DNA from: Liolophura sinensis
Taxonomy: Eukaryota > Mollusca > Polyplacophora > Chitonida > Chitonidae
Reading direction: 5' to 3'
Assembly (NCBI RefSeq): GCF_032854445.1
Contig: NC_088304.1
Location: 31,813,732 to 31,877,731 of the forward strand
Length of the DNA: 64,000 nucleotides
Shown: piece by piece, positions 8,301-61,285 of the stretch
How positions within the stretch are numbered: the first letter of the stretch is position 1
Layout of the letters: the number at the start of each line of letters is the position of its first letter
Position numbers and translations under genes: made by a program
Notes under the pieces: generated by a model
Databases searched by the model: none
Seen by the model: only the letters and a program-made list of their open reading frames with translations
Told to the model about the DNA's origin: nothing

Positions 8301-9972
8301 GGACAAAGGGAATGGGTACAATTAACGACATTCCGTTGAAAAGTACGCGGCATTAAAATAGCTTGTGTTGTTAGGAGCATTTGCTCTAAAAGCGCATTTA
8401 CAAAGTGAAGAAAAATATTAAATATTGAAAAGTGCTTCCATAGATGCCAAGCGAGGTTATGAGATCAGAACACTTCGCATCATCGCTTCGTACACCAATA
8501 GTATCGCTTCGCATTTTTGCACCATCGCTTCATTATTCTTGCTTACCGTTATTTAGACTAACAAAAGTAAAGAAAAATAATAAGTCTCATAAAAAAACCC
8601 TAAAAAACAAAACCAAAAAAAAAATAAAAAAAATAAAAACTCCCAGAAAACCCCCCAAGGCCATGATTAGGTGATTACAAATTCATGACTTCAACAGTGA
8701 TATGTATTACATTTTAAATCCACCATATTATAGTTTATTTTTTAATTGGCGCTCAGCATAATTGTCATCAGTTTTTTTGCATGTTTGTTGAAGCACATTT
8801 AAGACCGTTTCCTCTTTGTCTGGCTAAATACTGTTCGGCCCGGGCCCAGTTGTTCAAAAGTGTATTAAAACTAAGCCCGGTATTAAATTTAGTCTGGACT
8901 TCAGTACCGTTAGCTTTGTATTAGACTAAAATTGGTATTAAGATTTAGGAATGGCTTAAATTTTTAATACACTCTTGAATAGGGTGCCCCAGTGTCAAAA
9001 TACTGATCCTGGTTTGGGTATTACAAGTGGTGCTGTCAGCATGGCGTTCCAGTGAGGCAGCACTAGGCGTATGTCAGAACTGAGAGCAGTATTCTACTAG
9101 CCGACAAAGTCGTGACATATCGCCGAAACAATGTTAAAGGCGACATTAAACCCTAAACAAGCCAAAAAAAAAAAGTACAGCTGAAAGAAATCCTCGTCAA
9201 ATCTGAATTTAACAACTTACCTTCCACAATCGGTGATAAAGTAGTATCCACCTGGAAAACAATCGTAAATTTCTTAGTAAGAACATGATCTATAATTTCA
9301 TAACATGGGTTTATGTTTGCTGGCTGAAAAGCACTTGCCAGCACCACATTTTGTTTTTGTGTTTTCAAAAAAAAAGAAAAAAAGAAAAAAAATTAGTTGC
9401 TGAGCTTCTTTGACTGCGCATACAAACTCTAGTTTATTTAAAAGTTTAAATGTGTACGGCCCTTTGTAAGTGCAAAGACATGCAAATATTCAAGAGAAGG
9501 TCATTCAAGAACGTTCAGCTTCAGCTTATGCATTTGTTTAAAATCAGAACAAAAGCAGGGTAACTTTTCAACCGGATAAACATCTGAATCGTATACATAC
9601 ATTTTGGACTTCCCTGATCTCGATACTTTTCCAGCGTTTTGAATTTCCTCCCGTGGGTTGGTCATGTATCGCTGTGACCCCGTCACTGTACATCAACTGA
9701 CAGATGCCATCCTGGTCCGAAAAATTCACCGCGAAACAAGTGTCGTCTGTGGCGCCACGAACTACGCAGGAAAGTAAACTTGCTGATGCTATTGAAAAGT
9801 TTTTGGAAGAGAAAAGCTGGACTGGTGAGGATTTGAAGACTGCATACGACGTCAGCTGAAAATCTGGAGAAGCAGACGACACATCAACTGAACTCAGTGC
9901 AACAATAGCCGGGGGAAAATATCCAGTGAGAATGATAAGAACGAATATAAGATGAGTATTTCTAAGCACCAT
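5350..9972 (-). CDS. Secreted C-type lectin-domain protein with PAN/apple-like N-terminus
   Basis: Four exons joined by hand: 9972-9601, 9251-9221, 8296-8096 and 5567-5350, with phases 0, 1, 1 and a total of 822 bases (273 aa plus stop). Residues 1-26 form a hydrophobic signal peptide. Residues 65-100 hold three Cys (69, 79, 91) in a PAN/apple-like pattern (CFAVNF, then GICQLMYSDG). Residues 148-269 form a C-type lectin domain: Cys148 and Cys160, the TWCETDGGHLV motif at Cys177, Cys197, the IWTGG/YTNWLD core, Cys254, and FICE at Cys269. The usual EPN or QPD sugar/calcium triad and the WND motif are not visible, so classical Ca-dependent sugar binding is doubtful. Such proteins in molluscs are usually secreted mucosal or haemolymph recognition factors (family knowledge). 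The donor after exon 3 (GTGTGA) is weak, but the join restores a continuous domain. Confidence 0.85.
5568..8095 (-). other. Intron 3 of the lectin gene
   Basis: About 2.5 kb between the two halves of the lectin domain. It contains a SINE family C copy at about 6440-6765. The remainder shows no coding signal. Confidence 0.75.
6440..6765 (+). mobile_element. SINE family C copy 1
   Basis: Body 'gactgggtgggatgtcat', 'tttggcggcgtggactc', 'cacacctaatgact', and tail 'acgacgttaaaccccaagca'. A second copy with the same blocks lies at 17295-17675. The head region near 6475 (ggcggaggcagtcgggagac, then tcaaaccccgg) looks tRNA-like but is weak. The minus-strand ORF here is not a gene. Confidence 0.65.
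8845..8992. mobile_element. Small foldback element ending in GGGCCC/GGGTGCCC
   Basis: The left end 'gggcccagttgttcaaaagt' with 'gtattaaaac' mirrors the right end 'tttttaatacactcttgaat' followed by 'agggtgccc'. It lies in lectin intron 2 and has no coding capacity. Confidence 0.5.
8993..9165 (+). mobile_element. Decayed tRNA-derived SINE fragment
   Basis: 'agtgaggcagcactaggcgt' matches the family B/C body and 'gcgacattaaaccc' matches the tail. The head is lost. Confidence 0.5.
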
Positions 9973-9999
9973 TTTGCAGAATTTGCAGAACTAATGAGG

Positions 10000-21390: not shown

Positions 21391-22160
21391 CTGAAGCGCT
21401 CCAGAATTGCTAAAACAATGGACAGAATGGTGTTAAAGAGCCTTCAGCTCTAGGATTTCGTGCATGTGTTATACTTAAAAAGAGCATATTGTTTGTCGAA
21501 AACGGGGTCACACAATAAGAGTCAGAATCGGCTTTTGAAATGATAATGTATACAGGGTATGGCTATACAGATATACAATATAGCAATATGGATGAACACG
21601 TCACAGGTAATGTCTTACTGTTGGTCTGTAGTCTTGCCTCAGTTTTCAATCTTCCGGAAGATAGTTCAAGTCCTGTTTTCAGAGTTTCGGTCAAACTCAT
21701 TTGCTTTATCGGAAGCATTTAGAGCTAAAGTCCACTGACAAAATGGCTGCCCATAAAATTTCCAAAGTATAAAAAATAAGTATCGACTATATTGCTCGTG
21801 ATCTCCATTTGTTTTGAGTTGTAAACATCGTCATTATTTTAGTTACGTACATTTTCGATCTGTTGTCATTGTTTTCTTTTCCTCTAATTGGATGTTTCCA
21901 CTCAAGGCTATGGTGTATGAGGAATCTGTACCTTAATGCAAGGTTATCACAGAGGTAAAGAATGAGCAGAGTTTGTATTCGGTTTACTGACATGCGTGTA
22001 TTACCACCAGACCAAATGAACACGTTTCTCCTGGAAATGTCGAATGATGATCTCAATAAATAACAAAGAAAATAAATACGCTTACTTTGTTTTCATTGAG
22101 AGTGAGGAAGGAATCGGATGTTTATCCATCGTGCTAAATTAGCATGGAGTAGTGGTGTTT
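21391..22160. other. No gene recognised
   Basis: I see no exon or repeat with support here. Confidence 0.5.
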
Positions 22161-22164
22161 AAGA

Positions 22165-22735
22165 CTGTTAGGGTGTAGGGGTTTCAGGTTGGGCGTGTAG
22201 AGGATTTGGGGTGTAGGTGGTAGGGCGTGTAGAGGATTTGAAGTATAGGTGGTTGGGCGTCTAGAGGATTTGAAGTATAGGTGGTTGGGCGTGTAGAGGA
22301 TTTGGGGTGAAGGTGGTTGGGCGTGTAGAGGATTTGGGTGTAGGTGGTTGGGGTTGTAGGGGTTGAAGGTGCAGGTGTTGAAGGGGATGTAGGGGTTGAG
22401 GGTGTAGGGGATTGGAGGTGTAGGGGTTGGAGGTATAGGGGTTGTGAGAGTAGGGGATGGGGGCGTAGACGTCAGGGGTAAAGGAGGTGTAGGGGTTGAG
22501 GGTGTAGACGTTAGGGTAAAGTAGGTGTAGGGGTTGGGGGTGTAGACGTTAGGGGTAAAGGTGGTGTAGGGGTTGGGGGTGTAGACGTTAGGGGTAAAGG
22601 TGGTATAGGGGTTGGAGGTGTAGGCGTTAGGGGTAAAGGTGGTGTAGGGGTTGGGGGTGTAGACGTTAGGGGTAAAGGTGGTGTAGGGGTTGGGGGTGTA
22701 GACGTTAGGGGAAAAGGGGTGTATGGGTTGGGATT
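22165..22735. repeat. G-rich minisatellite, units about 33-39 bp
   Basis: The left part repeats 'gggcgtgtagaggatttggg'. The right part repeats a 39-bp unit of 'ggtgtagacgttaggggtaa' followed by 'aggtggtgtaggggttggg'. The plus strand is strongly G-rich with many GGGG and TTAGGGG runs, so G-quadruplex formation is plausible. The minus-strand Pro/Thr-rich ORF is an array artefact. Confidence 0.9.
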
Positions 22736-22749
22736 GATTATGGGATTAA

Positions 22750-23380
22750 ACAATGTTCGAAGAGAACTGGGGTCTTGCCTGGTTCAGTAGTCTTATGTGT
22801 CACTTTTATTTGCTTGTAAAATAGGCCTTTCAACAGTACGATATACACGTTCAAAACCGACCTGGGGCAGGGAATTTTATCATTTTCTCAATGTTCGGGA
22901 GGCCTTGGTGACAGACATTACGTGGTTGTGGATGCTCATGTGACCGTTAGCGTAGCCTAGAGTTCCCTGAAGACCAGTGTACATATCTGTTTGTAAGTTG
23001 TAAGAAAGTTCACAGAAGTGAAACATTCTTGAGTATGGCTTTAAATAACAATCGAATAAGCTTAAGAGCACGAATCTAGTCGTCGCTTTTAGGACATCAG
23101 CTTTCAGTATATTTGACTTGTAGCATAAAACTGAGTGCTTTCTTACCAGAGAAATAGACGTGTCTTGATATAGAATGACAATGACATTGCGCCGCTTCAC
23201 TGAAATATCATGCCGCAGGTACAAGACAAACCAATATTTCTCATCTGATACAGAGCGCCAAGCGAGAAAGGGCCAAGATAACCCCGGAGTCTATAAAATT
23301 ATGAATATGAACTCACTCAGGACTGGAAAGAACACGGGACAGCAGGGCTGCTGACAGGTATGAGGCACCTCAAGGACACA
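22750..23380. other. No gene recognised
   Basis: Contains a minus-strand open frame (22880-23224) without splice or domain support. Part of it near 23015-23045 is a decayed family A SINE tail ('cttgagtatggctttaaa'). Confidence 0.45.
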
Positions 23381-23384
23381 GTAC

Positions 23385-24545
23385 CAGTACACAGACACCC
23401 GACATGAGGCACAACATACACACAATATATGGACATCCGACATGATGTGCAACACAGGCCCAGTATACCGACACTAGACATAAAGGACCATACAGACACT
23501 GTATATCGACACCAGACATGACGCACCATACAGACACAGTGTACAGACACCAGACATGATGTGCAACACAGACCAAGTGTACAGACACGAGACATGACGC
23601 AACACAAAGACACAGTATACCGACATCAGAAATAACGAACCACACAGACACAGTATACCGGCATCTAATATGACCCGCCACAGATACAGTATACGGACAC
23701 CAGACATGACTCACCACACAGGCACAGTATACAGACACCAAACATGATGTACAATGCAGACCCAGGACATCGCCTCCAGACATGACGCAACACACAGGCA
23801 GAGTGTACAGACACCAGACATGATGCTCCACACAGAACCAGTGTACAGACACCAGATATGATGCATCACACAGACCCAGTATACTGACACCAATCATGAC
23901 TCACCACACAGTATACCGACACCAGACATCACGCACCACAAAGATACAGTATACCGACACCAGATACGACACCACATAGACCCAGTATACCGACAGCAGA
24001 CATGATGCAGCACACACAGTATTCCGACATCCGACATCTCGCCCCACATTGTTACTGTACTGGTTATTACTGGTAACCAGACATGACCCCGTCAATGTAT
24101 ACCAACAGCAGAATGACCAGGTCACGGAATACCAACACCAGATATGGCCCTGTTACAGAATACCAACACCAGACATGATCACAGTATACCAACAGCAGAC
24201 ATGAACCCGTCACAGTATATCAACACCAGATATGACTCTGCCACGGTTTACCCCCAGCGGACATGGTCCAGTCAGAGTATACCAACAGCAGACATGAACC
24301 CGTCACAGTATATCAACACCAGATATGACTCTGCCACGGTTTACCCCCAGCGGACATGGTCCAGTCAGAGTATACCAACAGCAGACATGAACCCGTCACA
24401 GTATATCAACACCAGATATGACTCTGCCTCGGTAAACCAATACAAGCATAACCTGGTCAAGGTATTCCAACACCAGACATGACCTTGTCACAGTTTACCG
24501 CCAACGGACATGATACCGTCAAAGTAAACTGACGGCCAAAAGAAA
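23385..24545. repeat. Minisatellite, 31-38 bp units, left block
   Basis: The unit is roughly cagtataccgacaccagaca followed by tgacgcaccacacaga. From about 24200 to 24430 it shows a 93-bp higher-order period made of three 31-bp units. The array resumes at about 25136 after a transposon relic. Confidence 0.9.
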
Positions 24546-24789
24546 CTTTACAAACAGTTCAAATCAATTTATATTGCCAAAGCAAAAAACAGGATGACTG
24601 AAGTTTAATATGTTCAAAAGACCAATGACTTTAGATACTGAAAGTCTTGAGTAAGAACGGACGAACCAGCCCTCAAATCATTTTACAAGTGAACAAACAG
24701 AGCAGGGGTAGAAAAATAGCCATTCCATCTTGGTTAACAATGGGCAGAGTATACAAAAAGCTGATTATTTTTAAAATCAGTCAATATCA

Positions 24790-25152
24790 AAATCAATCAA
24801 TATCGCGTGTGGCCACCCCTTGCTTCAATGCATGCGAAAACTCTCCGACGCATACAAAAAGGCAGTCGTCGGATGAGATGACGTAGGATTCGTTGCCATT
24901 CAACTTGGAGAGCGAACGCCAGTTCTTGTCGGTTGGCTGCAAGGTGTGGCCGTTGTATCGACGACCCATGATATCCCAAAGGTGTTCTTTAGGGGACATA
25001 TCTGGGCAACGTGTAGGCCACGGCAAGACGTCGACGTCGTTGGCGTCCATAAAGTTCTGCACAACTTGAGATGTATGGGGTTTGGCGTTGTCATGCTGGT
25101 AGAGAAAACGACGTGGCTGCTGTTGAAGGATGGCAGTGTACCGCCAGCACAC
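24790..25152 (-). pseudogene. Tc1/mariner transposase relic
   Basis: On the minus strand the frame contains QHDNAKPHTSQVVQNFMDAN, then VLPWPTRCPDMSPKEHLWD: the last two acidic sites and surrounding motifs of a Tc1-type DDE transposase. The C-terminal motif (RRLPFCMRRRVFACIEARGG, then HTRY and stop) is in another frame at 24797-24979, so a frameshift has occurred near 24960. The N-terminal half and a clear TIR pair are missing. It sits inside a minisatellite. Confidence 0.9.
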
Positions 25153-25485
25153 ATGACGGAGTCACAGAACAGAGACACCTGGCTTCAAGTCGTAGCAGTA
25201 TACAGGCACAAGCATGCCCGAGTTACAGTTTCCCGACAGCAGACATGACGTCACGGTATACTGACAGCAGCCATGACATCGTCACAATATACACCAGGCA
25301 TGATGGAGTCACAGTTTCCCGTCAGCAGACATGACCCAGTCACGGTATAACGACACCATGCAGGCATAACGCCCCACAGACATGACCCCGTCGCGGTATA
25401 ATGACACCATGCAGGCATAACGCCCCACAGACATGACCCCGTCACGGTATAAGGACAACATGCAGGTATAACGCCTCACAAACAA
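25136..25485. repeat. Minisatellite, right block after the Tc1 relic
   Basis: Same unit type as 23385-24545 ('cagcagacatgac', 'gtcacggtataa'), with a longer 59-bp variant repeated three times at 25335-25470 ('caccatgcaggcataacgcc'). Confidence 0.85.
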
Positions 25486-25819
25486 TACATTTAAATCAAT
25501 ATAGTTGAATTGTAAGTTTAAATTTAAATATTAAAATTTCTGTGGGTTTTTCTCTTGATACTTGCTTCTTTTCTTGTTTTGTTTCCTCCTCATTGTCGAA
25601 AGACAACGAGAGTTTAAAAATAAAAAACACATCTGACTAAATCAGTTACTGTTGCTACAGCTATATGGTCTTAATACCGGTACGAAAATATGAGACACTT
25701 GGTTATAATGAAAGAGATAAAATAAAAACACAACAAACAACTGCTTAACTAATGTAGTAACCTTTACTAAGAACTTTTTTGGACCATACACAGGGGAATT
25801 ACGATTCTGTTTTAAACTT

Positions 25820-28800
25820 TTAATGACAAGGAACAATGGAGAGAGATTTGTCTTTGCAGTGAGCTTTCTGAAAGAAACACCTGGAAGAAAGAAAATTATG
25901 AACGTCAAATTCAAGCATTCACACACCACCCGTCCATACTAATTACGCATTCACACACCACCCATCTACACCAGTCAATCATTCACGCAAAACCCGTCTT
26001 TAGCAGTTAAGCATTCACACACAAAACGTCTATGCCAATTAAGCATCCATAGAACACCCGTCTATACTTACCAAGCATCCGTACACCACCCGTCTATACC
26101 AGTCAAGCATCCATACACCACCCATCTGTACCAGTCAAGCATTCATACACCACCCATCTATACCAGTCAAGCATTCATACACCACCCGTCTATACCAGTT
26201 AAGCATCCATACACCACCCATCTATACCAGTCAAGCATTCATACACCACCCGTCTATACCAGTGAAGCATTCATACACCACCCGTCTATACCAGTTAAGC
26301 ATTCACAGACTACCCGTCTATACCAGTTAAACATCCATACACCACCCGTCTATACCAAGTACGATTTCTTACACCACCCGTCTATACCAATTATGCATTC
26401 ACACACCGCCCGTCAATACAAATATGGACGGGTGGTCTATGGATCCGTAAGTGGTATAGACGTGTGGTGTATGAATGGTTGATTCATATAGACGTGTGGA
26501 GTATGAATGCTAGATTCGTGTAGACGGATGGTGTGTGAATGCTTGACTATTATAGACGTGTGGTGTATGAATGCGTAATTAGTGTGGGGTAGGAATGCTT
26601 GACAGATATAAACGGGTATAAATAAAGATGGTTAAGGTATTGATGCTTGACTGGTATAGACGGGTGGTGTATGGATATTTAACTGGTATAGAGGGGTGGT
26701 GTATGAATGCTTCACTGGTATAAACGGGTGGTGTGTCAATGCATAATTGGTATAGACAGTGGTGTATGAATGCGTACTTGGTATAGACGTGTGGTGTATA
26801 GATGCCTGATCGATATACACGTGTGGTGTGTGAATGCTTAACTGGTATAGACAGGTGATGTATGAGTGCGTAATTGGTATTGACGGGTGGTGTATGGGTA
26901 TTTAACTGGTATAGACGGGTGGTGTATGAATGCTTGACTGGTATAGACGGGTGGTGTGTGAATGCGTAGTTGCTATAGACGGGTGGTGTGTGAATGCTTG
27001 ACTGGTATAGACGGGTGGTGTATGAATGTTTCACTGGTATAGACGGGTGGTGTATGAATGCTGACTGGTATCGACGGGCGGTGTATAAATGCGTAACTGG
27101 TATAGACGTGTGGTGTATGAATGCTTAGTTGGTATAGACGGGTGGTGTATGAATGCTTAACTGGTATTGACGGGTAATGTAGGGATGTGTAATTGGTGTG
27201 GGGTAGGAATGCTTGATTGATATAAACGGGTATAAATAAAGATGGGTGATGTATTGATGCTTGACTGGTATAGACGGGTGGTGTATGGATATTTAACTGG
27301 TATAGACGGGTGGTATATGAATGTTTCACTGGTATAGACGGGTGGTGTATGAATGCTTGACTGGTTATAGACGGGTGGTGTATGAATGCGTACTTGGTAT
27401 AGACGTGTGGTGTATAGATGTTTGATCGGTATACACGGGTGGTGTGTGAATGCTTAACTGGTATTGACAGGTGATGTATGAGTACGTAATTGGTATAGAT
27501 GGGTGGTGTGTGAATGCGTAATTGGTATAGATGTGTGGTGTATGAATGCTTGATTGGTATAGACGGTTGGTGTGTAAATGCTGACTGGCATCGACGGGCG
27601 GTGTATGAATGCGTAATTGGTATAGACGTGTGGTGTATGGATGCTTAGTTGGTATAGGCGGCTGGTGTATGAATGCTTAACTGGTATTTACGGGTAATGT
27701 AGGGATGTGTAATTGGTATAGACGGGTGGTGTATGGATGCTTAGTTGGTATAGACGAGTGGTGTATGAATGCTTAACTGGTATAGACGGTTGGTATATGG
27801 ATGTTTAACTGAAATAGACGGGTGGTGTATGGATGTTTAACTGGTATAGACGGGTGGTGTGTGAATGCTTAACTGGTATAGACATTTGGTGTATGAGTAC
27901 GTAATTGGTATAGACGGGTCGTGTATACTGGTCAAGGAACTGACAATCGTGGCGAGCGAGGGCTTTGACTGAGAGTAACAAGAGCCTATTTTTATTTGTA
28001 CACTCAAAACTAATCTGTTAATTTTAACAGAAATTCTGTGAGTGATTCTAGAATGTATTCTGTAATTATAACATAATACTTTGTTATATTCAACATAATA
28101 TACCGTTAGTTTAATAGAATTTTTATGTTGAATTAATAGAATATATGTATCATATTAAAACAATAATCTAGGGGGCCTCCGTGGCTCAGTCGGTTAGCGC
28201 GCTAGCGCAGCGTAATGGCCAAGGAGTCTCTCACCAATGCTGTCGCTGTGAGTTCAACTCACGCTGGCTTCCTCTCCGGCAGTACGTGGGAAGGTCTGTC
28301 AGCAACCTGCGGATGGTCGTGGGTCTTTCCTCCCACCATAATGCTGGCCGCCGTCGTATAAGAGAAATATTCTTGAGTACGGCGTAAAACACTAATCAAA
28401 TAAATAAATAAACAATAATCTATTACAATAGCAGAATACATTCTAACATTACCTAGACAACAAACTTTCCGTTAAAATTAACCGATTAATTTTGGAAATC
28501 TGTTGTTCTTTCCTGCGTTTACTGTGACGTTTTGTGGGTAAACAGGTGCATATCATACAAGTATTGTAAGGGAACAACGGCAAATCCAGATCGGACCCGT
28601 GTCGCTGTTGAAGTGAAAACGTGTTCCATCAAATGAGCTATTTTCAATGGTGAAATTTTTTCATGGCTTGGAACTTTTGAATGCGGCAAGAAATGTCTCA
28701 TGCTGTTGATGAAAGCAATTAGCAGCGGGTTATAAATATTATCTTTTAAATATTAAAAAAAAACAACCCATAAACACAGACGCGGGTGAATACTCACTGG

Positions 28801-33410: not shown

Positions 33411-33529
33411 GCTAGGTGGCGTGTAGATTGCTACTATTTATGCATTTACATGAACAGTTAGAATAATACCCTGACTGAGTTAAAACCGACATTTTATTTC
33501 ACAGGTTAAGTGACATCTTTTGGAAGCTG

Positions 33530-34345
33530 TCACACAGTCATCGCTGCTCTGGTTTTACTCTCAGTGCTGTATGTCTATCACATAGTTGTCGCTGCTCTGG
33601 TTTTACTCCCTCTACTGTACGTCTATCACACAGTCATCGCTGCTCTGGTTTTACTCACTATGCTGTACGTCTATCACACAGTCGTCGCTGCTCTGGTTTT
33701 ACTCTCAGTGCTGTATGTCTATCACACAGTCGTCGCTGCTCTGGTTTTATTCCCTCTACTGTACGTCTATCACACAGTCATCGCTGCTCTGGTTTTACTC
33801 ACTATGCTGTATGTCTATCACACAGTCATCGCTGCTCTGTTTTTACTCACTATGCTGTATGTCTATCACACTGTCATCACTGCTCTGGTTTTACTCACTA
33901 TGCTGTATGTCTATCACACTGTCATCACTGCCCTGGTTTTACTCACTATTCTGTATGTCTATCACACAGTCATCGCTGCTCTGTTTTTACTCACTATGCT
34001 GTACGTCTATCACACTGTCGTCGCTGCTCTGGTTTTACTCACTATGCTGTATGTCTATCACACTGTCGTCGCTGCTCTGGTTTTACTCACTATGCTGTAC
34101 GTCTATCACAGTCATCGCTGCTCTGGTTTTACTCACTATGCCGTACGTCTATCACACAGTCGTCGCTGCTCTGGTTTTACTCACTATGCTGTACATCTAT
34201 CACACAGTCATCGCTGCTCTGGTTTTACTCACTATGCTGTATGTCTATCACACTGTCGTCGCTGCTCTGGTTTTACTCTCTATGCTGTACGTCAATCACA
34301 CTGTCGTCTCTGCTCTGGTTTTACTCTCTGTGCTGTAGGTCTTTT
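33530..34345. repeat. 48-bp minisatellite, 17 units, open reading frame across the array
   Basis: The unit is roughly gtctatcacacagtcatcgc followed by tgctctggttttactcacta and tgctgtac. Because 48 is 16 codons, a 301-codon frame (33510-34415) repeats a hydrophobic 16-residue unit (HTVIAALVLLTMLYVY). A second frame is open for 250 codons. There is no signal of purifying selection on one frame, since both stay open. I treat it as a tandem array, with a coding alternative discussed in the findings. Confidence 0.85.
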
Positions 34346-35385
34346 ATTAAATTGCATTCGTTTATTGCCGGATGCATCCCTCCTAGAAGTCAATGGCATA
34401 AAATTTCGTCCATGACCAAGTATTCCATTCTTTATGATTCTTCTGCGATTTATGTCTTCGAAAGATATGCTCAGATACGTTTGCATGATGGGATGATATC
34501 CCACATCGCACCAAAACCAATGGTTACGACATTTGTTTGCTTAAAAAATGCACTGGGCGAAATGTTAGGTTATTGGTCGAATTTGATGGTGCATGGAGTA
34601 TATACAATACGACACTCCAAACCACATGTGGCGTGTTGAAAGATTTCCTCACACTGATATGAACAACCTGGTGTAAAATATGAAAAGAATTAGCAGAAGT
34701 GGGAAAATTAACATATTTTATAACTTATTTCGTATGCATTGTATGATGAGACATGGCACGTCTCATGACCAGTCAACTTGTCTTGGCGGCCCCTTGACGT
34801 TTGCCTGTTTGACGGAGATGGTTGTCTCCCGCCTTCACTTTTCCTGCATCACAGATTCACTACAACAACCCCGAGCTTCTCCATCTATTGATATAGCTTT
34901 CCAAAAACACGTGCTTGTCTACAATCTTTTAGATTGGTGGGAGGAACCCGGACAGAGCCTAGGGGAAAATCAGGACTATTTGCAGGTTGCTGCCAGACAA
35001 AGGAATGACTCGTTAAAAAAAAAAAAAAAAAAAAAAAAATTAAAAAAAAATTGTACTGATAACCAGAGCCAAAGGGCTGTGAAATGGGTCTTTTAGTTTC
35101 TGAAAAATAACACGTCGTGGAGGGCGTAACGCACGTAAACTACTTTGGAGATCTACTTTCGAATTTGACAGGAGTGTTTGCTTTAAATCTCGCATGTACG
35201 CTATAGCTTTCAGGAATTTAGGCGTACACACCATGCGTATTCACTACGCTGTTTTAATTTTAGAAGCGTATCATCTAATTTTTAAGTGGCACGCCCCTTA
35301 TCTGTAGCAATGTGGTCAATGTCAGTTGGCATACCTGCCGTCTGATAACTTCCACATTCTTTATTTCTTCACCCTTTTCTCGCCA
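34346..35385. other. No gene; SINE fragment and poly(A) tract
   Basis: Contains a truncated family A SINE piece at 34937-35010 ('gattggtgggaggaacccgg') and an A-rich tract at 35016-35050. Nothing else is supported. Confidence 0.55.
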
Positions 35386-37373: not shown

Positions 37374-38169
37374 TTTTGTTTCAGTTTGCTGAAGTTACTG
37401 ACTTTTTAAAATCCGTTTTCTACTTATGCATCTGAAATCTATGTAACCAATTATTAAATGTATCCATTACTATCGCGATTGTAACCAAAGATAGACCTAC
37501 CAATACAGTACTGTGTACAGGTCTACCTTTTCTTAAGAAGGATTACCTGGCATAACTTTAACTGTAATTGTTAAAGAATTATTAACAAAGCCATGGAGTT
37601 TGATTTTGATACCTTGAAGGTAAAATGCTGATTCAGCTTGGCAGATACACATTTCCGTCATACACCAACTTTGCATCCAGCCAATTTCCCCTATGAATAT
37701 TCATGTATTCATTGGATATAAATATTTATGAGCTGGTTATGACCAATGCCCAAGATTACCTGGTCGATGCTCAAATTCTCAAACTCAACAGTTGGTTCAG
37801 CAATATTACAACTGCCATGAATTTAAATGAATTAGAAATTATTATTTCAATACCACATGAATATAAAATCAGATATTATTACGTTCTCTTCGTATCATGT
37901 AGCCTTTTTCCAAGTATATACTGGCCTTCATCTACGTGGGGGTATAGACAGAGTACACTTGCACTGGGAAGATGGGAACATGCACAGAAATTATCTCATG
38001 ATTAAAAATTAAATGAAGTTAACTTCAATTTTTGATTTGCAAAATCTTTTCCTTTCGAAGAAATCACACACACAAAACAAACCACAACCATCAGAGTTTG
38101 TTTAACCATCACTCAGACCATGTACATTCGGTAAATACATATTTATAGTAAAAAATACATTATCTACAG

Positions 38170-39245
38170 TGAATGGGCATGTGCCCATTCATCAGCACAC
38201 CAGAGACACACATTCCATGTACATGTATGGTATCACTATTTCCATGTATAATGTGAACATTTCCTTGTATACTATGAGTATGTTCAGAATTAACATTTCC
38301 ATGTATGGACAGAACACTTCCATGTTTATGATTAGCATTTCCATGTTCAGATTTAACATATCTATGTTTATGATAAACATTTCCATGAATGGACAGAACG
38401 CTTCCATGTTTATGATCAACATTTCCATGTTCAGATTTAACATATCTATGTTTATGATAAACACTTCCATGTATGGACAGAACACTTCCATGTTTATGAT
38501 TAGCATTTCCATGTTCAGCATTAACATATCTATATTTATGATAAACACTTCCATGTTTATGATCAACATTTCCATGTTCAGATTTAATATATCTATGTTT
38601 ATGATAAACATTTCCATGTACGGAAAGAACACTTCCATGTTTATGATTAGCATTTTCATGTTCAGAATTAACATATCTATATTTATGATAAACACTTCCA
38701 TGTAAGGACAGAACACTTCTATGTTTATGATCAACATGTCCATGTTCAGATTTAACATATCTATGTTTATGATAAACATATCTATGTTTATGATAAACAT
38801 TTCCATGTGCGGACAGAACACTTCCATGTTTATGATCAACATGTCCATGTTCAGATTTAATATATCTATGTTTATGATAAACATTTCCATGTGTGGACAG
38901 AACACTTCCATGTTTATGATCAACATTTCCATGTTCAGATTTAATATATCTATGTTTATGATAAACATTTCCATGAATGGACAGAACGCTTCCATGTTTA
39001 TGATCAACATTTCCATGTTCAAAATCAACATTTCTATGTTTATGATAAACATTTCCATGTATGGACAGAACACTTCCATGTTTATGATTAGCATTTCCAT
39101 GTTCAGATTTAATATATCTATGTTTATGATAAACATTTCCATGTACGGAAAGAACACTTCCATGTTTATGATCAACATTTCCATGTTCAAATTTAACATA
39201 TCTATGTTTATGATAAACATTTCCATGTATGGAAAGAACTTCTCA
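38170..39245. repeat. 21-bp / 84-bp higher-order minisatellite
   Basis: The base unit of 21 bp (ttccatgtttatgataaaca plus t) is arranged in sets of four variants. This gives an 84-bp higher-order unit that includes 'tgtatggacagaacactt' and 'tgttcagatttaacata'. With 21 equal to 7 codons, frames stay open on both strands (361 codons on minus, 178 and 201 on plus) as heptad-like repeats. Confidence 0.9.
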
Positions 39246-39299
39246 TCTCTAAACATGGAATGCAGATTTCTGGACACACGGTATATCCCTACCCTAAAA

Positions 39300-40300
39300 C
39301 ACGTCCCATGCGCATGTACATCCTAACTTCCACATGGTCTCAGTTTTCTTTTACACAGTGCAGATGGATAACAGTGTGATCAAATCATACACATACGTGC
39401 TATGTTCATTTCAATATACAATGTACCATACTGACATTTACACAGATGTCTAATTCAACACAATGTGAAAAGACCATCACACAAGATTTACAAACGTTTA
39501 AGTATATCATGATCATTTGAGTGTCGCCTTCTGTATGTGGTACAATCTTGGGCTTTATCTTTATGATATATGTATATCGCAAAATCACTTACATATGTGC
39601 AGTGGAAAAAAAACACACATTTAATGTAAAACAGAATCATGTTTAGATGTCAATTATTTGCACACATTAATTATCAAATAATTATTTCCTTAGGTAATGG
39701 CTTGCACCATTGGCAGCTCCATTGCCTATACTATCCTTTCACAGTTGTAACCAGCAGCAGTACTAACAACTCACTGGTAGAAGTACAACATGTTTTATAA
39801 TGTAAATATGTTTGAATACACATGATCTGTACATGTATAGGAATCAATATATCACAGACTACTAACAGTTCTCAATAATATTATTACACGGCTAGAATTG
39901 ACATTTTTAGATTTTCTTTACAGGGTGGTTTTTAGTCTAACACAGACTGTCTGATGTAGGATTTGACTTCAGACTGAAACAGGACGAAATCTTGCGTTGT
40001 TGAACAGCTGGCCCACAGCCAAACCTGCTGAGAAAGAGCACAAGTCATTGTATTTACTTTCTGTTCCTTATCTGATCTGAGTTGTAATATATCACTCAAA
40101 AACTTTTCACTTATATGACCACATTAAGGATGGAGGCAAAAACGAGTGCCCTGAGTAAACCATCCACCTTCCCCAGGTTCGGGACAAACATTCAGACAAT
40201 GCCACAGGCAAAAACAGCCACGCTTGAATTCGAGCCAGTGACCTAATTGTTCATGGGCCTGACAGTCACAGTGAACAAGTGCAGCCCTCAGTAGTAATAC
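39300..40300. other. No gene; decayed SINE remnants
   Basis: 'aacttttcacttatatgacc' near 40100 looks like a decayed family A remnant. No exon is seen. Confidence 0.45.
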
Positions 40301-59462: not shown

Positions 59463-59635
59463 TCGGGGCTTCTGTGGCCGAGGGCTTCCTCCCTGGCTGT
59501 ACTTGGGAAGGTCTGCCAGCAACCTGTGGATGGTCGTGGGTTTCCCTGGGCTTTGTCCAGTTTCCTGTCACCATAATGCTGGCCTTTATCGTTAAAGTGA
59601 AGTATTCTTAAGTACGGCACAGAATGAGACAAAAA
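59463..59635 (+). mobile_element. SINE family A with internal deletion
   Basis: Starts 'ggggcttctgtggccgaggg', jumps to 'cttcctccctggctgtactt' and 'gggaaggtctgccagcaacc', then 'caccataatgctggcc' and 'aagtacggcaca'. The A-box to B-box part is deleted. Confidence 0.8.
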
Positions 59636-60119: not shown

Positions 60120-60172
60120 AAATCAGCAAATTATACAGTAAAGTATCCATGCATGCCATGTAACTTTCAAAT

Positions 60173-61285
60173 ATGGCCTGTCAGAATCGACTAGTCTTCC
60201 GCAAAAATTGGTGCCTTTGGTTGGCATTCTCTGTGGTTGTTTGCTGTCTGATGCTGTACGGACTAGACCAGATGTTTGAAAACAGGGCTCAGCAGCGATG
60301 GGAACGTTATTCATACCAAGCGATGAACAGGCTGTTGGCAGAGGGCCAAGAAGTAGATGACAAGGTTGCTGCTTTGAAACAGCTGGAGTCCAAAGTTTTG
60401 AATTGCACTGCTGCATCTCCTTCCGCAGTGAGGGATCGTATTCAGCACGTGTCACTGGAGAGACAGTTGAACAGCACAAAGTGTCAAGGTTTTGAGGACT
60501 TTGAAGAAGTCCTCATACTTACTCCAGCAAGACAGATGGGCTCAGTTGTGAAAAGGTATTTCAGAAATCTGCTTAGTTTCCAGTATCCCCTCTGTCGGAT
60601 CCGAGTCGCCATCGGTGTCAATCAAGATGATGATTCAACTTTTAATCTGATTCAGACCTATGCGGCTTCCTTAGCCAGTAATTTCAGTAGAATTGACATT
60701 TATAGACTGAGCTTGAAAAATGACGACTTTGACATCGGTGGCATGGACCGCCACTTGAAACACATCCAATTACAACGTAGAAGCCACATAGCACAAGTTC
60801 GAAATGCTCTCCTGTTTGCAGCTTTACAGTCTGAAGGATGGGTTTTATGGATTGACAGTGATGTAAGAGAAATGCCTCCAGAAGTGTTAGATAAACTTGT
60901 AGGGAGTGGTAAAGAGATTGTTGTCCCCAGCTGCATGTATCGCAAATCTCCTAAGCAACTTGATGTCTATGACAAAAACACCTGGCGAGAAACTAATTCC
61001 TCTCGTCAATTGCAAAAGCTCTTGCGGGATAAAGATTTGCTTGTTGAAGGTTACAGCCAATCAAAACGGATATATCTGAATGACATCCAATCAGAAGGCC
61101 CGGTAGTGGAGTTGGATGGTGTCGGTGGCTGTTGTCTATTGGTCAGAGCAGATGTCCACAGAAAAGGTGTCATTTTCCCACCATACGTGTTCAGGAACCA
61201 CATTGATACTGAGGGGTTTGCACAAGCGGCCAAAGCTATGGGATATAAGCTGTACGGTATGCCATTTGTACAAGTTATTCACTGA
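60173..61285 (+). CDS. Golgi type II glycosyltransferase, Anp1/Mnn9 (GT62) family
   Basis: A single coding exon of 370 aa. Residues 13-31 form one transmembrane anchor after a short basic cytosolic tail, the layout of a Golgi type II transferase, with a charged stem (about 40-105). The catalytic domain runs from about 111 to 370: VLILTPAR; ARNELLF-like QVRNALLFAAL (208-218); the metal-binding DxD in VLWIDSDV (DSD at 228-230); IVVPSCMYR; YDKNTWRET; EGY (292-294); the family hallmark VELDGVGG (312-319); VRADVHRKGVIFPP; and DTEGFA (345-350). In yeast, Anp1, Van1 and Mnn9 add alpha-mannose to N-glycans in the cis Golgi. The donor and acceptor here are unknown. N-glycosylation sequons lie at 77, 100, 170 and 275. 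The coding part has no intron, unlike its neighbour AKAP10. It ends VQVIH, slightly short of the fungal C-terminus. Confidence 0.92.
   Translation: MACQNRLVFRKNWCLWLAFSVVVCCLMLYGLDQMFENRAQQRWERYSYQAMNRLLAEGQEVDDKVAALKQLESKVLNCTAASPSAVRDRIQHVSLERQLNSTKCQGFEDFEEVLILTPARQMGSVVKRYFRNLLSFQYPLCRIRVAIGVNQDDDSTFNLIQTYAASLASNFSRIDIYRLSLKNDDFDIGGMDRHLKHIQLQRRSHIAQVRNALLFAALQSEGWVLWIDSDVREMPPEVLDKLVGSGKEIVVPSCMYRKSPKQLDVYDKNTWRETNSSRQLQKLLRDKDLLVEGYSQSKRIYLNDIQSEGPVVELDGVGGCCLLVRADVHRKGVIFPPYVFRNHIDTEGFAQAAKAMGYKLYGMPFVQVIH

What the first reader, a model, noticed from the sequence alone, without database searches (positions are those of the whole stretch)
60173..61285. A fungal-type Anp1/Mnn9 (GT62) mannosyltransferase in an animal genome, without coding introns
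Seen: VELDGVGG, VLWIDSDV with a DxD, EGY, and HRKGVIFPP followed by DTEGFA, in the GT62 order, behind a single TM anchor. Known: GT62 is characterised in yeast mannan synthesis, and animals are not known for mannan. Inference: either an ancient gene kept by some animals or one gained by transfer. It is embedded beside a normal animal gene (AKAP10) and animal SINEs, which argues against contamination. Its intronless coding region fits transfer or retroposition. Its glycan product in this animal is unknown.
Basis: partly seen in the sequence, partly recalled or inferred. Interest (0 to 1): 0.75.

Follow-up and report, generated by a model that had tools for sequence, protein, structure and literature searches.

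The report
Yeast-type mannan enzyme in a chiton
A marine mollusc (a chiton) carries three intact genes for a sugar-adding enzyme family known from building the mannose coat of yeast cell walls, with the catalytic residues in place, which suggests that an animal may make a yeast-like mannose chain not yet described.

Summary
Window 60173-61285 (+) is an intact 370-codon gene, without coding intron, for a GT62 (Anp1/Mnn9, PF03452) glycosyltransferase: 194.6 bits against a cut-off of 28.8. Its one confident relative with a solved structure is yeast Mnn9, by sequence and predicted fold; the Mnn9 residues that mutation showed to be essential are kept. The host is a chiton: three contig lengths equal scaffolds of the Liolophura assembly (now L. 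sinensis). The gene is one of three uninterrupted GT62 genes on one chromosome, old (synonymous sites saturated), each with one membrane anchor, in gap-free, repeat-bearing host DNA. That argues strongly against contamination and against a lone recent retrocopy. Bacteria carry GT62 too, sparsely. In my trees the chiton proteins side with yeast against 15 bacterial ones; with two recalled yeast paralogues added they lie outside the yeast clade. I favour an old eukaryotic gene over recent transfer, but other animals and fungi could not be searched. The chiton has GT32 genes, one matching Och1, and one bacterium fuses GT32 with GT62; GT15, GT34 and GT71 were not detected. Best mechanism (inferred): Golgi GDP-mannose-dependent mannosyltransferases extending an Och1-type primed glycan into a short alpha-1,6-mannose chain.

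The parts
60173..61285 (+). Coding sequence of GT62 (Anp1/Mnn9-like) glycosyltransferase, one of 3 copies found in the genome; 370 aa, no coding intron
60209..60265 (+). Predicted single transmembrane anchor (residues 13-31), N-terminus cytosolic (type II)
   Evidence: mean hydropathy 2.17; 3 basic, 0 acidic residues in the 15 before it
60443..61186 (+). PF03452 Anp1 domain (residues 91-338)
60776..60781 (+). Arg202-Arg203, equivalents of Mnn9 R209 and R210
   Evidence: role of R209 from PMC3787745
60854..60862 (+). DxD motif Asp228-Ser229-Asp230 (Mnn9 D236, D238)
   Evidence: PMC3787745
60971..60973 (+). Asp267 = Mnn9 D280 (essential in yeast)
   Evidence: PMC3787745
61046..61054 (+). Glu292-Gly293-Tyr294 = Mnn9 E305 segment; glutamate present in 3 chiton copies and yeast, absent in 15 of 15 bacterial rows
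61280..61282 (+). His370 = Mnn9 H389, the metal ligand; last residue of the protein
   Evidence: PMC3787745
60101..60119 (+). Acceptor-like site of a possible 5' UTR intron; copy 3 has one 67 bases before its ATG, copy 2 has none within 300 bases
   Evidence: not verified by RNA
59466..59632 (+). Interspersed host repeat, 39 other scored genome copies at 83-88% identity
52388..53665 (-). Open frame with RGS domain, consistent with AKAP10 (name recalled)

Best explanation
This is a real, old chiton nuclear gene for a Golgi type II, metal-dependent, retaining GT62 mannosyltransferase, one of three kept paralogues. Shown: family, predicted fold, conserved catalytic residues, three intact copies, host context. 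Inferred: the enzyme uses GDP-mannose and Mn2+ to add alpha-mannose, most likely alpha-1,6, to a glycan in the Golgi. Two paralogues probably pair, as Mnn9 pairs with Van1, one priming and one elongating. A GT32 of the same genome that matches Och1 is the likely supplier of the first alpha-1,6-mannose. Because the yeast branching families GT15, GT34 and GT71 were not detected, the product is more likely a short linear alpha-mannose extension on secreted or surface glycoproteins than branched yeast mannan. Origin: most likely an old eukaryotic gene that this animal lineage kept, rather than a recent gain from a fungus or bacterium.
For: PF03452 194.6 bits. PDB sequence search: Mnn9 3zf8 E 4.1e-37; next, collagen galactosyltransferases at E 0.19 or worse. 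Foldseek top hit of the AlphaFold2 model (mean pLDDT 79.3, pTM 0.73) is 3zf8, E 9.8e-21, TM 0.57 by query and 0.72 by target. R209, R210, D236, D238, D280, E305, T365 and H389 equivalents in 3 of 3 chiton copies; E364 in 2 of 3, Asp in the window copy. R209, D236, D280 and H389 mutants of yeast Mnn9 are inactive (PMC3787745). Three uninterrupted frames; dN 0.38-0.59 with synonymous sites saturated. Tree: chiton plus yeast on one side of a branch from 15 bacterial rows, 90/99; 97/96 with the recalled rows. Chiton GT32 L041 matches Och1 9n3s at E 5.7e-10. A bacterial GT32-GT62 fusion links the two activities. C1, C7 and C8 lengths equal scaffolds 1, 3 and 4 of the Liolophura paper.
Against: No activity, expression or glycan data. 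Linkage and acceptor cannot be read from sequence. Only one database-derived fungal sequence was available; its branch is long (4.27) and its composition odd, and in that tree the window copy joins yeast (81/75) while chiton monophyly is neither shown nor rejected (p-AU 0.336). Chiton copies 2 and 3 are in raw identity mostly closer to bacteria (31-43%) than to yeast Mnn9 (31%). GT15, GT34 and GT71 searches rang in no control genome, so their absence is weak evidence. Rmsd to 3zf8 is 6.3 A over 292 columns, and model residues 292-295, in the EGY stretch, are below pLDDT 50. Guanine-site residue Q124 of Mnn9 is Arg or His in the chiton copies.
Confidence: 0.72

Rival explanations
1. Old horizontal transfer from a fungus (or fungus-like eukaryote) into an ancestor of chitons, followed by two duplications; the intronless coding regions are a trace of it.
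For: PMC5225481 reports PF03452 only in fungi among 153 genomes, 34 of them animals (passages). Coding frames of 3 of 3 copies are uninterrupted. Chiton plus yeast are separated from bacteria.
Against: In the tree with recalled Anp1 and Van1 the three yeast rows form their own clade (100/98), the chiton rows group apart (88/84), and chiton with Mnn9 to the exclusion of Anp1 and Van1 is disfavoured, p-AU 0.018. PMC5225481 describes three GT62 clades across Saccharomyceta, so a donor from that group after the duplications should nest in one of them. Early fungi were not sampled, and two rows rest on recall.
Confidence: 0.2
2. Transfer from bacteria.
For: Bacterial relatives exist in several phyla and are up to 43% identical to a chiton copy. 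Bacterial genes have no introns.
Against: 15 of 15 bacterial rows fall on the other side of a long branch. All 15 lack the E305 glutamate; 12 lack the whole segment and carry another insert before ETEG. Chiton plus Azospirillum is not favoured, though not firmly rejected (p-AU 0.094). Bacterial frames were not tested for an anchor.
Confidence: 0.06
3. Ordinary, widespread invertebrate gene, perhaps already named automatically in sequence databases, not discussed in print. This agrees with the best explanation about the protein and is not exclusive with it; it differs in how surprising the finding is.
For: Three diverged copies imply age. The 2017 survey used 34 animals with chromosome-level genomes, and the terms mollus, Nematostella, Branchiostoma and Lottia occur nowhere in its main text.
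Against: None of nine paper searches showed a report of an animal GT62; these cover open-licence PMC text only, and most hits were seen as listings.
Confidence: 0.5
4. Contamination or misassembly: a foreign gene in the assembly.
For: A fungal-type gene without introns, as first seen.
Against: Three copies, two 8.5 kb apart and the third 5.7 Mb away, on one 36.6 Mb contig; no N in the window or in L008-L010; host repeat 541 bases upstream; GC 0.447 near the 0.421 of the neighbouring RGS frame and CpG depletion (0.53); 31-32% identity to yeast Mnn9.
Confidence: 0.01
5. A GT-A enzyme of another animal family (for example collagen galactosyltransferase, GT25) that merely resembles GT62.
For: Foldseek ranks 2-9 are collagen galactosyltransferase 1 entries, E 6e-12 to 8e-11 (names of 9u7h and 9u7i).
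Against: The best COLGALT1 sequence match is 13.9 bits against 131 for Mnn9; Pfam lists only PF03452 for the window protein.
Confidence: 0.02

Closest known systems
Saccharomyces cerevisiae Mnn9 (GT62, M-Pol I and II subunit, PDB 3zf8)
   Same: Family, predicted GT-A fold, type II layout, DxD, R209, R210, D280, E305 and H389 equivalents, EGY segment
   Different: 31-32% identity; shorter hairpin before the D280 equivalent; window copy ends at the metal-ligand histidine; E364 is Asp in the window copy; residue 124 is Arg or His instead of Gln; host without fungal wall
Yeast Van1 and Anp1 (GT62)
   Same: Same family (Anp1 typed from recall scores 360 bits; Van1 was not scanned)
   Different: In the tree with recalled rows the chiton copies lie outside the yeast clade
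Bacterial GT62 relatives (Azospirillum, Devosia, Parvibaculum and others; L011-L021, L024, L028, L029, L040)
   Same: Same catalytic residues except E305 in 15 of 15 rows; 8 of 8 genomes rescored are over the Pfam cut-off
   Different: No EGY glutamate; 12 of 15 lack that segment and have another insert; L011, L024, L029 and L040 are parts of multi-domain glycosyltransferases
Yeast-type Och1 (GT32, PDB 9n3s)
   Same: Chiton L041 protein matches it at E 5.7e-10; proposed upstream partner
   Different: Not the gene in the window; GT32 also holds MIPC synthases (PMC5225481), so Och1 function is inferred

Membership tests
GT62 (Anp1/Mnn9/Van1) | Match to PF03452 above curated cut-off | tested here: met
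   194.6 bits, cut-off 28.8; copies 2 and 3: 192.3 and 185.9, with weaker PF00535 matches of 30.3 and 28.6 bits beside it
GT62 (Anp1/Mnn9/Van1) | GT-A fold closest to Mnn9 | tested here: met
   Foldseek rank 1 is 3zf8, E 9.8e-21; model of middling confidence; only the window copy was modelled
GT62 (Anp1/Mnn9/Van1) | Catalytic residues R209, D236, D238, D280, H389 of Mnn9 | tested here: met
   3 of 3 chiton copies
GT62 (Anp1/Mnn9/Van1) | Type II membrane anchor | tested here: met
   Hydropathy in 3 of 3 copies; localisation itself not tested
GT62 (Anp1/Mnn9/Van1) | GDP-Man: alpha-1,6-mannosyltransferase activity | not testable with these tools
   Needs an enzyme assay
Mannan polymerase complex (M-Pol I/II) | Hetero-oligomer of GT62 paralogues | not testable with these tools
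   Three paralogues exist; interaction unknown
Yeast mannan pathway | Och1-type GT32 initiator in the genome | tested here: inconclusive
   3 PF04488 places; L041 matches Och1 in the PDB; L042 and L043 were not compared with the PDB; other GT32 functions are not excluded
Yeast mannan pathway | GT34, GT71 and GT15 partners | tested here: inconclusive
   No match in G000, but no control genome rang
Recent horizontal transfer from fungi | Nested within a fungal clade, high identity | tested here: inconclusive
   31-32% to Mnn9; outside the yeast clade in a tree with two recalled rows; no other fungi available
Recent retrocopy of one host gene | Intron-bearing parent gene and young age | tested here: not met
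   The 3 copies found are all uninterrupted; synonymous sites saturated. An old retroposition of their ancestor is not excluded

The most novel reading that the evidence does not exclude
Chitons, and perhaps other spiralian animals, run a Golgi outer-chain pathway made of an Och1-class GT32 primer and a GT62 pair, which builds linear alpha-1,6-mannose chains on secreted glycoproteins. Mannan-type outer chains would then be an old eukaryotic trait kept by some animals, not a fungal invention.
Probability: 0.3. Interest if true: 0.78.

Novelty: new member of a known kind. Interest (0 to 1): 0.5.

Why it matters
A published survey states that genes with PF03452 were found only in fungi (PMC5225481, passages read), and Mnn9 is discussed as a possible antifungal target (PMC3787745, abstract). 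Three intact GT62 genes with the catalytic set in a mollusc contradict the strict fungal view. They point to an undescribed mannose structure in an animal and make it directly testable by enzyme assay and glycomics. It also bears on how far alpha-1,6-mannan can be treated as a fungus-only marker.

Tried and rejected
Viral relatives: three scans of viral contigs, with the window protein (no pattern match), with A1 (50 pattern stretches, none confirmed) and with A2 (8, none confirmed); these start from exact short patterns and can miss distant relatives. Phage tblastn found nothing at E 0.01. Bacterial source: relatives found, but they fall apart from the chiton rows. NCBIfam gave nothing for the window protein. 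The VIA-align library was not available. Broad eukaryote phylogeny: no collection of animal, protist or fungal genomes is offered, so it was not done. Nine paper searches on GT62, PF03452, mannan polymerase, Anp1/Mnn9 or Och1 showed no report of an animal GT62; two searches returned no paper, one search was too loose to inform, and apart from PMC5225481 and PMC5872309 (passages) the hits were seen as listings only. The tenth search was for the genome paper.

Rows left out: of the 12 loci, L022 (partial) was left out of the trees, and L015 and L022 out of the AlphaFold2 alignment (10 of 12 used). Of the loci, L024, L028 and L029 went into the trees; L025, L030 and L035-L038 (weak) did not, L023, L027 and L034 repeat genes already held, and L026, L031-L033 and L039 are second pieces of such genes.

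Full report
What is there. Window 60173-61285 (+) holds one open frame of 370 codons from ATG to TGA, with an in-frame stop at 60161. Pfam finds a single family at E 0.1 or better, PF03452 Anp1, with 194.6 bits against a cut-off of 28.8. In the PDB the only confident relative is yeast Mnn9 (3zf8, E 4.1e-37, 131 bits); collagen galactosyltransferases follow at E 0.19 or worse. Chance is excluded for practical purposes.

Host. G000 has 609,464,459 bases in 632 contigs. The Liolophura japonica assembly has 609,495,693 bp in 632 scaffolds (PMC11068029, passages and section 11 read). C1, C7 and C8 have lengths 96,433,062, 60,359,117 and 58,388,612, exactly scaffolds 1, 3 and 4 of that paper. The window's contig C10 (36,632,598 bp) is 5.4 kb shorter than scaffold_6 (36,638,032), and the whole is 31 kb shorter, so the versions differ slightly. 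A published correction renames the species L. sinensis (PMC12441733, whole text). The mitochondrial gene order read is of the kind I recall for chitons. The animal claim is sound.

Not contamination. The window and L008-L010 have no N. A repeat ending 541 bases upstream recurs across the genome: 39 other copies scored out of 3,167 candidates, on more than ten contigs. An RGS-bearing frame lies 6.5 kb away on the other strand; that it is AKAP10 is recall. GC is 0.447 for the coding region, 0.421 for the RGS frame and 0.389 for the window; CpG o/e is 0.53 for the coding region and 0.68 for the window.

Three genes, not one. PF03452 matches three places in the genome, all on C10, without stops: the window copy, C10:26169556-26170293 (+) and C10:26160347-26161036 (-). 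The last two are divergently arranged, about 8 kb start to start, and 5.7 Mb from the window copy. Copies 2 and 3 are 51% identical, and the window copy is 37-39% identical to them. Over the catalytic domain dN is 0.38-0.59 and synonymous differences (0.79-0.88 per site) are saturated. Intact frames at that divergence imply long purifying selection. Each has one strong hydrophobic segment near the N-terminus with basic residues before it. An acceptor-like site ends 53 bases before the window ATG and another 67 bases before the ATG of copy 3; copy 2 has none in 300 bases. The background is 171 such sites on the two strands of the window. This hints at a 5' UTR intron, no more. Copies 2 and 3 also match PF00535 (30.3 and 28.6 bits, cut-off 23.3), and copy 3 the cryptococcal mannosyltransferase family PF11735 below its cut-off (20.3 against 28.8); both are much weaker than PF03452.

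Catalytic anatomy. PMC3787745 (abstract and parts 1-3 of 6 of its text) reports Mnn9 R209, D236, D280 and H389 mutants as inactive, and places R210, E305 and T365 in the pocket. Numbering the 3zf8 chain by its D236N mutation puts Q124, R209, R210, D280, E305, E364, T365 and H389 where the paper names them. In 3 of 3 chiton copies R209, R210, D236, D238, D280, E305, T365 and H389 are kept. E364 is Glu in two copies and Asp in the window copy, and Q124 is replaced by Arg or His. In the window copy the metal-ligand histidine is the very last residue.

Fold. An AlphaFold2 model from 11 sequences (window and 10 bacterial) has mean pLDDT 79.3 and pTM 0.73. Foldseek against the PDB ranks Mnn9 first (E 9.8e-21, TM 0.57 by query and 0.72 by target, rmsd 6.3 A over 292 columns), then collagen galactosyltransferase 1 (6e-12 to 8e-11). 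Residues 292-295, in the EGY stretch, are modelled with low confidence.

Relatives elsewhere. A pattern-based scan of the prokaryotic species genomes found 12 bacterial relatives at 28-36% identity in 44 pattern stretches; 8 of the genomes were rescored, and 8 of 8 are over the Pfam cut-off. In samples around three of them GT62 is rare: at E 0.001 or better 3 of 385, 4 of 396 and 5 of 395 genomes (2, 3 and 2 over cut-off), the seed genome counted each time. The bacterial rows have two shapes: 12 of 15 lack the segment that holds E305 and carry another insert before ETEG; three (L011, L024, L040) keep a segment there without the glutamate. Several belong to multi-domain glycosyltransferases. 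One, L040, from the same genome as a Mesorhizobium MAG locus (L019), is a GT32-GT62 fusion of 529 codons.

Trees. With 3 chiton, 1 yeast and 15 bacterial rows, chiton plus yeast form one side of a branch (90/99, not starred by the tool). The window copy then pairs with the long yeast row (81/75), and chiton monophyly is neither shown nor rejected (p-AU 0.336); chiton with Azospirillum has p-AU 0.094. When yeast Anp1 and Van1, typed from recall, are added, the yeast rows form a clade (100/98), the chiton rows a group (88/84, not starred), the six together stand against bacteria (97/96), and chiton with Mnn9 alone is disfavoured (p-AU 0.018). The recalled Anp1 scores 360 bits for PF03452, but its letters are not verified. 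I read this as an old eukaryotic gene; a transfer from an unsampled early fungus is not excluded.

Pathway context. GT15, GT34 and GT71 gave no match in G000, though no control genome rang for them. GT32 gave three places. Two of them, L041 and L042, are uninterrupted frames of 335 and 347 codons with a hydrophobic stretch near the N-terminus by eye; L041 matches Och1 (9n3s) at E 5.7e-10, and L042 was tested only against Pfam. With the bacterial GT32-GT62 fusion this makes a GT32-then-GT62 order plausible in the chiton.

Mechanism. Shown: family, residues, fold prediction, copies. Inferred: GDP-mannose donor, Mn2+, retention, alpha-1,6 linkage, Golgi site, pairing of paralogues and N-glycan acceptor. 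The likeliest product is a short unbranched alpha-mannose extension. Confidence in the enzyme class is high; in the linkage, moderate; in a true polymer, low.

Novelty. [quoted passage not shown] My searches showed no paper that reports GT62 in an animal. That covers open-licence text only; sequence databases may already hold automatically named mollusc members, which I could not check. I file it as a new member of a known family in an unexpected host.

Noticed in passing
L040:713-2299 (-), genome G007 (that of L019, a Mesorhizobium MAG): A single 529-codon frame with GT32 (PF04488) and GT62 (PF03452) domains: an Och1-class and a Mnn9-class enzyme fused in a bacterium.
   Followed up: partly
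L011:1-3768 (+), Azospirillum picis: Very long frame with TPR, GT-D-like, GT4 and GT62 domains; L024 and L029 join GT4-type and GT62 domains.
   Followed up: partly
L041:464-1468 (-) and L042:465-1505 (-), G000 C1 and C8: Two uninterrupted GT32 frames in the chiton genome, one of them matching Och1.
   Followed up: partly
G000:C99 (108,685 bp): Contig looks like a head-to-tail concatemer of mitochondrial DNA, with 7 COX1 matches about 15.5 kb apart; one more on C632.
   Followed up: partly
window 38106-39323, also 22137-27644 and 33479-34636: Long regions with overlapping repetitive open frames, apparently tandem repeats.
   Followed up: no
window 24796-25161 (-): Fragment resembling a DDE_3 transposase, just under the Pfam cut-off (27.5 bits, cut-off 28.6).
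   Followed up: no
window 9571-9990 (-): Frame with weak PAN-like domain resemblance (16.7 bits, cut-off 21.1).
   Followed up: no
Assembly record of the host: The genome published as Liolophura japonica was corrected to L. sinensis (PMC12441733).
   Followed up: yes
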